From contig NZ_CP025030.1 in the NCBI RefSeq assembly GCF_002812705.1, forward strand, positions 2,852,001 through 2,916,000: 64,000 bases of DNA, written 5' to 3'. The stretch is from Achromobacter spanius. GTDB lineage: Bacteria > Pseudomonadota > Gammaproteobacteria > Burkholderiales > Burkholderiaceae_B. Shown piece after piece: positions 60,098 through 63,909 of this stretch. The position numbers and the translations under genes are program-made. The notes beneath the pieces are model-generated. The model was not told the DNA's origin. It searched no databases and worked only from the letters and a program-made list of their open reading frames with translations. Every line of letters begins with the position of its first letter. Within the stretch, counting starts at the first letter, position 1.

Positions 60098-61573
60098 TTA
60101 GCCCGAGATTTGTACGCCGATCCAGAACAGCGCGGCCGCCAACGACATCGAGGCGGGCAGGGTCAGCACCCAGGCCAGCAGGATGTTGCGCACGGTATTG
60201 CCTTGCAGGCCGGTCTTGTTGGCGATCATCGTGCCCGCCACGCCTGAAGACAGCACGTGGGTCGTGGACACCGGCAGGCTGAACACGTTGGCCAGCCCGA
60301 TGGCGGCAACGGCCGTCACCTGCGCCGACATGCCCTGCGCGTACGTCATGCCTTGTTTGCCGATCTTTTCGCCCACAGTCAGCACCACGCGGCGCCAGCC
60401 GACCATGGTGCCGGCGCCCAGCGCCAGGGCCACCGCCACGATGACCCAGAAGGGCGCGTATTCCGTGGTGGCCGTCAGGTCGGACCGCAGGCGTTGCAGG
60501 TCGGCGCGTTCGCGGGCGGGCAGCCCTTCGATGCTCGATACCTTCTTGGCAGTGTCATCCAGGCAGAGCAGGTAGCGGCGCACGTCGATACGCTTTTCGG
60601 GCGACAGGTCGGCGTAGTTGCTGACCCCGGCCAAATCGGTTTGCAGCGCGGCGATGGTCGGTACGGTCAGTTTGGGGTCGCAGCGGAAGGTGGGCGGCAA
60701 TTCGGTCGTGACGTCCGGGCGATTTAGCGCCAGGAAGTCGCCCAGCATCGCTTCGTTGCGGTGGTAGAACACGTTCAGATGGTTGGCCGCGTCGCGCGTG
60801 CGTTCAATCTGATAGGTGGTGCTGGTGGTATCCAGCACGAAGTTGGCGGGCACGATACCGATCAGCACCAGCATGATCAGGCCGATGCCCTTCTGGCCGT
60901 CGTTGGACCCGTGCACGAAGCTCACGCCCATGGCCGACAGCACCAGCACCAGGCGGTTCCAGAACGGCGGGTGCTTTTTGTTGTCGATGGCGCGGCGCTG
61001 CTCGGGCGTCTTGTGCATTTTCGACAGCGGCAGCCAGCGCTTGAGCAACAGCAGCAAGCCGCCCGCCACCAGGAAACCGGCGATGGGCGAGGCTACCAGC
61101 GACATGCCGATGTCGATCGCCTTGCCCCAGTTCACGCCGTCCGCCAGCGGCAGGTCGGTGATCAGGGCGTTGGCCAGGCCTACGCCCAGGATCGAGCCGA
61201 TCAGCGTGTGCGAGCTGGAGGCAGGGATGCCGAAGTACCAGGTGCCCAGGTTCCAGGCGATGGCGGCGGCCAGCATGGCGAACACCATGGCCAGGCCGCG
61301 GCCGGTATCCACGTTGATCAGCAGTTCCACCGGCAGCAGGTGGACGATGGCATAGGCCACACCCACGCCGCCCAGCAGCACCCCCAGGAAGTTGAAGATG
61401 CCGGACAACACCACCGCAAGATGCGGCGGCATGGCCTTGGTATAGATCACCGTGGCCACGGCGTTGGCCGTGTCGTGGAAACCATTGATGAATTCAAAGG
61501 CCAGGACGAATGTCAGGGCCAGCACAAGGCTGAGGCCGACCCAGAGGTCTAGGCCGTGGAAGAGGTCGAACAT
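60098..61573 (-). CDS. pitA: Low-affinity inorganic phosphate transporter PitA
   Basis: 491-residue inner-membrane metal-phosphate symporter. The PHO4 signature appears twice: FINGFHDTANAVATVIYTKAM near residue 28 (given as the motif region) and the related SFVHGSNDGQKGIGL in the second half. GIPASSSHTLIGSILGVGLA and LPVSTTHVLSSGVAGTMIA are the paired re-entrant segments. A soluble loop lies between about residues 270 and 370. Length matches E. coli PitA (499). No phoU-like gene precedes it. Confidence 0.94.
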   Translation of the reverse strand: MFDLFHGLDLWVGLSLVLALTFVLAFEFINGFHDTANAVATVIYTKAMPPHLAVVLSGIFNFLGVLLGGVGVAYAIVHLLPVELLINVDTGRGLAMVFAMLAAAIAWNLGTWYFGIPASSSHTLIGSILGVGLANALITDLPLADGVNWGKAIDIGMSLVASPIAGFLVAGGLLLLLKRWLPLSKMHKTPEQRRAIDNKKHPPFWNRLVLVLSAMGVSFVHGSNDGQKGIGLIMLVLIGIVPANFVLDTTSTTYQIERTRDAANHLNVFYHRNEAMLGDFLALNRPDVTTELPPTFRCDPKLTVPTIAALQTDLAGVSNYADLSPEKRIDVRRYLLCLDDTAKKVSSIEGLPARERADLQRLRSDLTATTEYAPFWVIVAVALALGAGTMVGWRRVVLTVGEKIGKQGMTYAQGMSAQVTAVAAIGLANVFSLPVSTTHVLSSGVAGTMIANKTGLQGNTVRNILLAWVLTLPASMSLAAALFWIGVQISG

Positions 61574-61681
61574 GGAGGCGGGGGGCGAGGTTCCGGCGTG
61601 AGGAGCCGATTATTGCAGATTTGTGACCGGGCCCTGGTTGCGTCGAAAAACCAAATCCCGCCCCGCCGACGGGCGCGACCG

Positions 61682-61807
61682 TCAGAATTTCGAGTATTGG
61701 AACTCGATCTCCATCGGCTTGCCCAGGTTGGCGGCGGTGTCCGCCTGGATCAGCAACACGGCCAGCACGCCCAGATACAGCAGGCACAGCCAAAGCGTTC
61801 TTTTCAT
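61682..61807 (-). CDS. 41-residue membrane microprotein, DltX-like (FxYxxF C-terminus)
   Basis: A short frame too small for most gene callers. ATG 61807 gives MKRTLWLCLLYLGVLAVLL, a positively charged start plus one membrane helix (about 5-20), then about 15 polar residues, ending FQYSKF directly before TGA. The C-terminal pattern F-x-Y-x-x-F is that of DltX, the microprotein of D-alanylation (dlt) systems, whose tyrosine is thought to carry the acyl group to the periplasm. It lies 57 bases downstream of a DltD-like gene on the same strand. The ribosome site is weak (GGAT about 11 bases upstream). Coding status is inferred from the motif and context. Confidence 0.6.
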   Translation of the reverse strand: MKRTLWLCLLYLGVLAVLLIQADTAANLGKPMEIEFQYSKF

Positions 61808-61864
61808 GAGGGCGTCAATCCAGTGGTGTCCGGGGGAACCCGTCTTCGCGGGTCGGGGCAGGCG

Positions 61865-62989
61865 TCATGGGCGGAATACCTCGGCAATCTTGCGGTTCAC
61901 GCGCAACCACCCCAGTTCGCCCAGATGCTGCACGTCACGCAGCATGCCCACTTCGTACGGCGCGTCATACAGGTCCATGCAGGTCATCGCGTAGCGCTGG
62001 CACAGCGTGGCGACTTCCTTTTGCACGGGATCAAAGCGATCCAGGTCCTTGAACACCATCGGGTGCAGCGGCTGCATCACGAACAGCGCATTCACGCCGC
62101 GCTGGTGCAGCAGCGCCATCAAGGCGGTGAGTTCACGCAGTTCAACGCGGCCCGTCAGCGGCTGCGGCTGATACGCGGTCTTGCCGCCCTCCGGAATACC
62201 GCGCAGGTATTTGTTGAAGAAATCGTCGCGCACCGCGTAGCGGTTGCCTGTCATCTGATCCTGTTCCGCGCGTTGGGCCTCTTCCGCCAGCGCGTCCCAG
62301 TCCACCACGCGGGCAGCGGCGGCAGGGCCTTCGCGCTCGCGCTCCGGGGCCGGCGCGGCATGCGCGGGCGTCCACAGGTCGACCAGGCGTTGACGGAATA
62401 CATAGGCTTGCTCGGCCATCATGGACCAGGCCACGCCTGCGTCGCCCTTGTCGCGCAGCCAGCGAGCCAGCTCGGCGCGGCCCTCGGGCTGCTTCACCAA
62501 GCGGGGCAGCAGCGGGTTGGCGTGTTCCTTGAATTCATCGGCGCCCAGCCCGCCGTCGCCGTCGAACCAGCCGGGCGACAGCATCACCACCACGCGCGAG
62601 GCCGGCGACAAGTCATCGGCCAGCGCGGCCAGCACCAATTGCATGCCCAGGGACTGAAAGCCCGAATGGCCATAGGCCAGCACGGGCATCTGGAGTTCGT
62701 CGGCAAGATAGCGGTAGGGAACGAAGCGCAGATCGTTGCTGGTCAGTTCGGACGAGCCCAGGATCACCAGCCGGTCCCCCGTGCGCAGCGCCTGGCTCAG
62801 CCGCGACAGGTTGCGCGTCTGCTCATGCAGCGTGTTGCCCAGGTTGGGCAGGTAGATGCCGGGCGCCGCGGCGGGCACGGGTTCCGTCTTCAAGGCCAGC
62901 GCGTGCCAGGCGAGCCAGCACACGGCGGCGGCGGTCGACAAGGCCAGCGCGGCGGCCAGGGCGTGCTGGCGTAACGGTCGTTTGAACAT
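61865..62989 (-). CDS. DltD-like SGNH-hydrolase membrane protein
   Basis: 374-residue protein with one N-terminal membrane anchor (about 12-32) and an extracytoplasmic SGNH-type domain. The DltD family features are visible: VILGSSELTSNDLRF (nucleophile Ser block), YGHSGFQSLGMQL, VVVMLSPGWFDGDG and the C-terminal catalytic Asp/His pair in DVQHLGELGWLRVN. DltD moves D-alanine onto envelope polymers in Gram-positive bacteria, and Bordetella has a related locus. No dltA, dltB or dltC is in this window. I start at ATG 62989; a TTG three codons earlier is possible. A small DltX-like frame follows. Confidence 0.85.
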   Translation of the reverse strand: MFKRPLRQHALAAALALSTAAAVCWLAWHALALKTEPVPAAAPGIYLPNLGNTLHEQTRNLSRLSQALRTGDRLVILGSSELTSNDLRFVPYRYLADELQMPVLAYGHSGFQSLGMQLVLAALADDLSPASRVVVMLSPGWFDGDGGLGADEFKEHANPLLPRLVKQPEGRAELARWLRDKGDAGVAWSMMAEQAYVFRQRLVDLWTPAHAAPAPEREREGPAAAARVVDWDALAEEAQRAEQDQMTGNRYAVRDDFFNKYLRGIPEGGKTAYQPQPLTGRVELRELTALMALLHQRGVNALFVMQPLHPMVFKDLDRFDPVQKEVATLCQRYAMTCMDLYDAPYEVGMLRDVQHLGELGWLRVNRKIAEVFRP

Positions 62990-63276: not shown

Positions 63277-63909
63277 ATGACCGCCACGACCCGAATCGCC
63301 CGCCGCCATCCCGACGACCTGATCATCGGCCTGGTGTCCGTCTCTGACCGCGCGTCCAGCGGCACCTACCAGGACCTGGGCCTGCCCGCCTTGCGCGAAT
63401 GGCTGGGCTCGGCGCTGGTGTCGCCCTGGCAGGCGGTCGACCGGCTGATTCCTGACGAGCCGGCACGCATTTCCGAAACCTTGATCGAGCTTGTCGACAT
63501 CTGTGGCTGCGATCTGGTCCTGACCACCGGCGGCACGGGCCCCGCCCGCCGCGACGTCACGCCCGAGGCCACCTTGGCCGTGGGCACGAAAGAGATGCCG
63601 GGTTTCGGCGAACAGATGCGCCAGATCAGCCTGCGCTTTGTGCCCACGGCGATTCTGTCGCGCCAGGTGGCGGTTATCCGGGAAACGCCTTCGCATGCGG
63701 CCCTGATCGTGAACCTGCCCGGCCAGCCGAAGTCCATTCGTGAAACCCTGGAAGGGTTGAAGGGCGATGACGGCGCCGTCATCGCGCCTGGAATTTTTGC
63801 CGCCATCCCCTACTGCATTGATCTGATCGGCGGGCCTTATGCAGAGACGCGCTCCGAGATCATCGATGCGTTCCGCCCCAAATCGGCCCGCCGCGCGCCC
63901 CAGTCCTGA
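63277..63909 (+). CDS. mog: Molybdopterin adenylyltransferase (Mog/MoaB family)
   Basis: Adenylylates molybdopterin before molybdenum insertion; the NasA reductase encoded at 27015 would need this cofactor. From ATG 63277 (210 residues), IIGLVSVSDRASSGTYQDLGLPAL, DLVLTTGGTGPARRDVTPEAT and the C-terminal LIVNLPGQPKSIRETL are the MoCF-domain motifs. Length fits stand-alone Mog. The longer frame upstream has no support. It is divergent from the DltD-like gene, about 287 bases apart. Confidence 0.92.
   Translation: MTATTRIARRHPDDLIIGLVSVSDRASSGTYQDLGLPALREWLGSALVSPWQAVDRLIPDEPARISETLIELVDICGCDLVLTTGGTGPARRDVTPEATLAVGTKEMPGFGEQMRQISLRFVPTAILSRQVAVIRETPSHAALIVNLPGQPKSIRETLEGLKGDDGAVIAPGIFAAIPYCIDLIGGPYAETRSEIIDAFRPKSARRAPQS

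What the first reader, a model, noticed from the sequence alone, without database searches (positions are those of the whole stretch)
61682..62989. Orphan DltD-like gene followed by a 41-codon DltX-like microprotein
The small frame encodes a single membrane helix and ends FQYSKF immediately before the stop. F-x-Y-x-x-F is the C-terminal motif of DltX, recently tied to D-alanine transfer onto envelope polymers, and the upstream neighbour is a DltD-like SGNH protein. In Gram-positive dlt operons, dltA, dltB, dltC and dltD are together; here only the two exported parts are present. This suggests a Gram-negative acylation system whose MBOAT and donor activities are elsewhere, or a different acyl group. 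Gene callers would skip the 41-codon frame. Bordetella is known to have a D-alanylation (dra) locus, so a relative here is plausible, but this arrangement is unfamiliar to me.
Basis: partly seen in the sequence, partly recalled or inferred. Interest (0 to 1): 0.8.

Follow-up and report, generated by a model that had tools for sequence, protein, structure and literature searches.

The report
Second D-alanine transfer pair in Achromobacter
This Gram-negative genome has a full D-alanine surface-decoration operon and, 2.2 million bases away, a second copy of just its two outward-facing parts (a transferase and a 41-residue carrier peptide), which suggests that one membrane enzyme feeds two separate decoration lines.

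Summary
Window 61865-62989 (-) is a DltD-family SGNH protein. Window 61682-61807 (-) is a real 41-codon gene: one helix, C-terminus EFQYSKF, dN/dS 0.05-0.06 in its own frame only, present beside dltD in 40 of 40 loci of this type examined.

The pair is not the whole system. The same genome carries a complete dra/dlt operon, dltC-dltD1-dltX1-dltB-dltA, about 2.2 Mb away, with its own DltX ending EFQYQQF. In 250 family genomes there are 74 DltD sites: 45 beside an MBOAT and 29 not. All 29 genomes with the unlinked site also have the operon; in 11 of them dltB is the only MBOAT found (in one of these dltB looks broken). DltX and DltD counts agree in 45 of 45 genomes. The unlinked DltDs form one clade (100/100) shared by Achromobacter and Bordetella at different chromosomal sites, and both genes are absent together from 4 of 29 Achromobacter genomes.

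Best reading: a second shuttle-plus-transferase module (DltX2-DltD2) charged by the one DltB. Whether it serves a new acceptor or the same one is open. New variant of a known kind.

The parts
61865..62989 (-). dltD2: SGNH D-alanyl transferase homologue, 374 aa, N-terminal helix 6-32 in the model (likely membrane anchor), GSSE (S79/S80) and D352-x-x-H355 active-site motifs
   Evidence: PF04914 158.3 bits; the 12 PDB chains with Foldseek E <= 0.001 are named DltD or D-alanyl-lipoteichoic acid synthetase; motifs invariant in 21 DltD1 + 33 DltD2 rows
61682..61807 (-). dltX2: 41-aa single-pass microprotein, N-terminal MKR, hydrophobic 5-22, C-terminal GKPMEIEFQYSKF; starts 57 nt after the dltD2 stop (in 8 of 30 compared sequences its ATG overlaps the dltD2 stop)
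60098..61573 (-). pit: phosphate transporter (PF01384), downstream neighbour, 108 nt after the dltX2 stop; not part of the pair
   Evidence: beside the pair in 36 of 36 Achromobacter loci
63277..63909 (+). mogA-like molybdopterin adenylyltransferase, divergent upstream neighbour; not part of the pair
   Evidence: in 35 of 36 Achromobacter loci, the other being cut by its contig end

Best explanation
dltD2-dltX2 is a second, detached transferase module of the D-alanylation (dra/dlt) system. DltA loads D-alanine on DltC in the cytoplasm. The single DltB passes it through the membrane to Tyr38 of DltX2, as it does to the tyrosine of the operon's own DltX1. DltX2 hands it to the active serine (S79 or S80) of its partner DltD2, which puts it on a periplasmic or outer-membrane acceptor. 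Shown here: the two genes, their conservation, their strict co-occurrence with the operon, one shared lineage in two genera, intact active-site motifs. Inferred: charging by DltB, D-alanine as the group, and transfer by DltD2. The acceptor is unknown; it may or may not be that of DltD1 (the isoenzyme rival below is a sub-case of this statement).
For: Complete operon in the same genome. 74 DltD sites in 45 of 250 genomes: 45 within 3 kb of an MBOAT, 29 not; 29 of 29 genomes with the unlinked one also have the linked one; in 11 of 29 no other PF03062 protein was found. DltX profile: same 45 genomes, DltX count equals DltD count in 45 of 45; in the Bordetella-type genus 8 of 15 genomes have both and 7 have neither. 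DltX1 and DltX2 share L10, Y11, G13, G29, P31, E35, Y38, F41 (20 of 20 rows). Unlinked DltDs lie on one side of a branch, 100/100 (again without the row that holds a stop). The pair stays together at different sites: between mogA and pit in Achromobacter, and beside genes that I read as pheT, ihfA and merR in the three Bordetella-type loci listed (these names are my reading, and the merR frame was listed in two of the three). Both genes are absent together from 4 of 29 Achromobacter genomes. In G213 the unlinked dltD has an in-frame stop and the operon's dltB and dltA matches are each split over two frames: decay of both parts in one genome. Mechanism of the tyrosine shuttle: PMC12148441 (passages).
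Against: No experiment. DltX2 does not match Pfam DltX, nor does the operon's DltX1. 18 of 29 genomes have a further MBOAT that could in principle take part, and one of the 11 without (G213) seems to have a broken dltB. Redundancy with DltD1-DltX1 is not excluded. A passage reports that in Dickeya a dltD mutant lost no resistance while a dltB mutant did (PMC5541007 citing Pandin 2016), so a separate dltD may not matter for that phenotype.
Confidence: 0.72

Rival explanations
1. Isoenzyme (a sub-case of the best explanation): DltD2-DltX2 is charged by DltB but modifies the same acceptor as DltD1-DltX1, under different regulation. It adds capacity, not a new target.
For: Same family, same catalytic motifs, about 41% identical; absent from 4 of 29 Achromobacter genomes and 4 of 8 Bordetella-type genomes that have the operon, so dispensable. 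Two of the residues that differ between the DltD1 and DltD2 rows do not hold in wider relatives (P0151 has A at 143, P0154 has Q at 354).
Against: Long branches between the D1 and D2 clades; eight positions fixed differently in 21 D1 and 33 D2 rows, among them 140, 143 and 354 beside the catalytic motifs in sequence; purifying selection on both genes.
Confidence: 0.36
2. Relay or editing enzyme: DltD2 takes D-Ala from or to DltD1 products (compare AlgJ beside AlgX) or hydrolyses D-Ala esters, rather than being a terminal transferase.
For: Precedent of two SGNH proteins with separate roles in one acylation system: AlgJ and AlgX (PMC4148444, abstract; that AlgI is their MBOAT is recalled). Foldseek lists SGNH esterases after the DltDs.
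Against: An esterase would not need its own DltX, yet every genome with the unlinked DltD has a second DltX (29 of 29).
Confidence: 0.1
3. The pair works with another MBOAT and another acyl group.
For: The window's genome has a second MBOAT, C1:3513449-3514123, and 18 of 29 genomes with the pair have one.
Against: In 11 of 29 genomes with the pair only dltB was found. The second MBOAT of this genome ends FIYYQF, its own shuttle motif, so by the published model it needs no DltX.
Confidence: 0.05
4. The 41-codon frame is a chance or decayed ORF.
For: Very short; no Pfam or NCBIfam match.
Against: dN/dS 0.06, frame-specific; present in 40 of 40 unlinked-type loci examined.
Confidence: 0.01

Closest known systems
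Gram-positive dltXABCD operon (DltX PF12459, DltD PF04914)
   Same: DltD family and fold; DltX-like topology and FxYxxF end
   Different: Here DltD and DltX stand apart from dltA, B, C; DltX does not match the Pfam model; teichoic acids are not expected in this kind of cell (PMC3544676 says so of Gram-negatives)
Bordetella dra locus (BP2987-BP2991 in PMC9858536)
   Same: The operon elsewhere in this genome has five genes; dra has five locus tags, and Bordetella-type genomes here have the DltX in it. That one of the five tags is DltX is my inference
   Different: The window pair is an extra, unlinked DltD-DltX of a separate clade
PatA-PatB, and alginate AlgI with AlgJ and AlgX
   Same: Acyl-tyrosine shuttle motif (PatA); two SGNH proteins in one system (alginate)
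   Different: There the motif is on the MBOAT itself (PMC12148441, passages); here it is a separate peptide present in two copies, each with its own SGNH partner
Dickeya dltBAC with dltD named apart (dltD or pbpG)
   Same: dltD listed apart from the dltBAC operon (PMC3544676, passages)
   Different: No second DltD-DltX pair reported in the passages that I saw

Membership tests
DltD (PF04914) | Pfam profile over curated cut-off | tested here: met
   158.3 bits against 22.7
DltD (PF04914) | fold like solved DltDs | tested here: met
   model pLDDT 80.6, pTM 0.80; the 12 PDB chains with E <= 0.001 are named DltD or D-alanyl-lipoteichoic acid synthetase, TM 0.53-0.62, rmsd 6-9 A; 6o93 by sequence, E 6.4e-7
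DltD (PF04914) | catalytic Ser and Asp/His | tested here: met
   S79/S80, D352, H355 invariant in 54 of 54 rows, X set aside
Gram-positive LTA DltD (TIGR04092 equivalog) | score over the equivalog cut-off of 150 | tested here: not met
   101.9 bits; the operon's DltD1 also fails at 104.1
DltX (PF12459) | Pfam profile match | tested here: not met
   no match; positive control, B. thuringiensis DltX from PMC5541007, 75.7 bits; hhalign to it not significant
DltX (functional definition) | single helix, short N-terminus with K/R, C-terminal FxYxxF | tested here: met
   hydrophobic 5-22, K2 R3, EFQYSKF; by hydropathy, no topology program
DltX (functional definition) | genetic linkage to DltD | tested here: met
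   40 of 40 unlinked-type loci; DltX and DltD counts equal in 45 of 45 genomes
DltX (functional definition) | carries D-Ala on its tyrosine; needed for D-alanylation | not testable with these tools
   needs biochemistry
complete dlt/dra operon | dltA, B, C, D together | tested here: not met
   not at this locus; met at C1:675385-679536 of the same genome

The most novel reading that the evidence does not exclude
D-alanylation in Achromobacter and part of Bordetella is a branched pathway: one DltA-DltC-DltB trunk charges two different DltX peptides, and each DltX delivers only to its own DltD, which modifies its own envelope acceptor. The DltX-DltD pair is thus a detachable specificity module that moved and is lost as a unit.
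Probability: 0.43. Interest if true: 0.72.

Novelty: new variant of a known kind. Interest (0 to 1): 0.52.

Why it matters
In the passages I read, the acceptor of D-alanine in Gram-negative bacteria is not settled, and what decides which polymer a MBOAT-SGNH system modifies is open. A genome in which one MBOAT most likely serves two DltX-DltD pairs gives a direct test: delete either pair, keep dltB, and see which cell fraction loses D-Ala. It would also show whether the DltX-DltD pair, not DltB, sets the target. D-alanylation is linked to resistance to antimicrobial peptides in Bordetella and Dickeya (passages).

Tried and rejected
Chance ORF: rejected. A system with no MBOAT in the genome: rejected. 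Recent duplicate of the operon's dltD-dltX in each genus: rejected, the unlinked DltDs of both genera group together. Pair served by the second MBOAT: unlikely. Wider search: DltD was found in 1 of 369 class-level genomes, the window's own; the DltX profile in 3 of 300 order-level genomes, all of the window's genus; so no independent example outside the family in those samples. The protein search with DltD2 scored only the 7997 best candidates and gave 78. The long + strand ORF 61556-62974 (472 aa) is antisense to both genes and taken, untested, as a G+C-rich artefact. Attempts to link the DltX alignment to Gram-positive DltX by profile failed. Papers on this pair: none recognised in the listings of searches (Achromobacter with D-alanyl and dltD: 0 papers). 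The primary papers Taneja 2013 and Pandin 2016 are not held, and the DltX mechanism paper cited as reference 25 in PMC12148441 was not looked up.

Rows dropped: of the 40 unlinked-type loci, six that repeat a genome already present and one that does not (L038) were left out; one search repeats the codon count with L038 (30 sequences, 0.060, unchanged). L027-L030 were not in the codon counts. One search drops 12 Achromobacter rows and the G213 row.

Full report
What is there. On the - strand, 61865-62989 encodes a 374-residue DltD-family protein (PF04914, 158.3 bits, cut-off 22.7) and 61682-61807 a 41-residue frame, 57 nt further on, ending EFQYSKF. The DltD model (pLDDT 80.6, pTM 0.80) matches solved DltDs: the 12 PDB chains with E <= 0.001 are named DltD or D-alanyl-lipoteichoic acid synthetase, at TM 0.53-0.62 and rmsd 6-9 A. 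S79/S80 of GSSE, D352 and H355 are invariant in 21 DltD1 and 33 DltD2 rows (one row, G213, holds an X at a stop).

The small frame is a gene. In 30 distinct Achromobacter nucleotide sequences, third codon positions vary in 37 of 40 codons, first and second in 13 and 4; mean dN over mean dS is 0.06. For the 20 genomes also used for dltD2, the ratio is 0.054 in frame and 1.8 and 4.0 in the two other forward frames, where 181 and 76 of 190 pairs were usable; dltD2 gives 0.12. All 40 unlinked-type loci examined carry it; six of them repeat a genome already present, and L007 is the window's own. In 8 of the 30 sequences the dltX2 start codon overlaps the dltD2 stop (L020, L021, L022, L024, L034, L035, L039, L040; coordinates), which suggests translational coupling. 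One of 610 window ORFs of 30 aa or more ends FxYxxF; none did in 60 simulated windows. The hydrophobic stretch 5-22 after MKR fits an N-in, C-out helix, which would put the tyrosine on the periplasmic side. Databases already hold such peptides as 'hypothetical protein'.

The missing parts are in the genome. The genome has one contig of 6,425,783 bases. At C1:675385-679536, - strand, lie dltC (679297-679536; PP-binding), dltD1 (678132-679397 as the longest frame, whose start overlaps dltC), dltX1 (677983-678135, 50 aa, ends EFQYQQF), dltB (MBOAT; TIGR04091 211.9 bits, under its cut-off of 375) and dltA (675385-676830; best NCBIfam match DltA, 390.8 bits, under its cut-off of 476). This is the kind of locus called dra in Bordetella pertussis, BP2987-BP2991 (PMC9858536, passage), reported to put D-alanine on the outer membrane (PMC4448142, passage). 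The Gram-negative DltX was noted before: PMC5541007 says that its topology is the same as in Gram-positives with no sequence similarity (section read).

Distribution. In 250 genomes of the family, 45 have DltD. All 29 genomes with an unlinked one also have the linked one; in 11 of the 29 dltB is the only PF03062 protein found. One of the 11 is G213, whose dltB and dltA matches are each split over two frames and whose unlinked dltD has an in-frame TAG. Unlinked DltDs occur in 25 of the 29 genomes listed for the window's genus and in 4 of the Bordetella-type genus. A profile of 20 DltX peptides, whose rows come from about 17 of the 45 genomes, finds the same 45 genomes, with as many DltX as DltD in each. 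In the Bordetella-type genus, 8 of 15 genomes have DltD and DltX in equal number, and 7 have neither.

History. The unlinked DltDs are one side of a branch with 100/100 support (33 of 54 rows; 20 of 41 rows without the row that holds a stop). In Achromobacter the pair lies between mogA and pit. In the three Bordetella-type loci whose neighbours I listed (L027, L029, L030) it lies beside genes that I read as pheT and ihfA, and in two of them a merR-like frame was listed (names recalled, not searched). The DltX2 rows of both genera share DT-x-ANL, which the DltX1 rows lack. The 4 Achromobacter genomes without the pair have mogA and pit 191-400 bp apart and neither gene between. One of them, G228, keeps a 41-bp piece like dltD2 (85% identical) and, by eye, what looks like the start of dltX2, so at least there the pair was lost.

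How it most likely works. The published model has DltB transfer D-Ala from DltC to the tyrosine of DltX, which hands it to the serine of DltD; other MBOATs carry the same hexapeptide on their own C-terminus (PMC12148441, passages). The genome's second MBOAT indeed ends FIYYQF. So DltX2 most likely takes D-Ala from the one DltB and feeds DltD2. This is inference from co-occurrence, shared motif and family, not shown. DltD1 and DltD2 are about 41% identical. Eight positions are fixed differently in the 21 and 33 rows, among them G140/A, D143/A and Q354/M, which lie beside conserved motifs in sequence; I did not measure distances in the model. Wider relatives weaken this hint: P0151, a DltD2-like protein, has A at 143, and P0154, DltD1-like by my reading, has Q at 354. 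A different acceptor is therefore possible but not indicated strongly.

Limits. MBOAT absence rests on one Pfam model. The 40-of-40 count covers the loci that I fetched for this. In 15 of 21 operon loci DltX ends FxYxxF; in the six from other genera (L057-L062) it ends VEYEYQQF, so the first F of the motif is not invariant. Neither DltX passes the Pfam DltX model (positive control), so I call them DltX-like by position, topology and motif.

Noticed in passing
L001:1168-2625 (-), genome C1:3513116-3514573: Second MBOAT of the genome (485 aa) ends SEFIYYQF: it carries the shuttle hexapeptide on its own C-terminus, unlike dltB.
   Followed up: partly
   Followed up: partly
L030 and L050 (G213): In a Bordetella holmesii-like genome the unlinked dltD has an in-frame TAG and the operon's dltB and dltA matches are each split over two frames, while both dltX frames are intact: the pathway seems to be decaying.
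   Followed up: partly
P0151, P0075: Some Achromobacter (named A. ruhlandii, A. xylosoxidans) have a DltD2 / DltX2 closer to the Bordetella type (51% to the window's DltD2; MKRWLRLYLLYLG...), so a third variant or a transfer between genera.
   Followed up: no
L072:3336-3376: Remnant of the lost pair between mogA and pit in G228.
   Followed up: partly
window:61556-62974 (+): 472-codon open frame antisense to dltD2 and dltX2; probably a composition artefact.
   Followed up: no
L005 (C1:673879-674637, +): Lysine/alanine repeat protein (histone H1-like by my reading) beside the dlt operon, also beside it in a Bordetella-type genome (L053:6495-7130).
   Followed up: no
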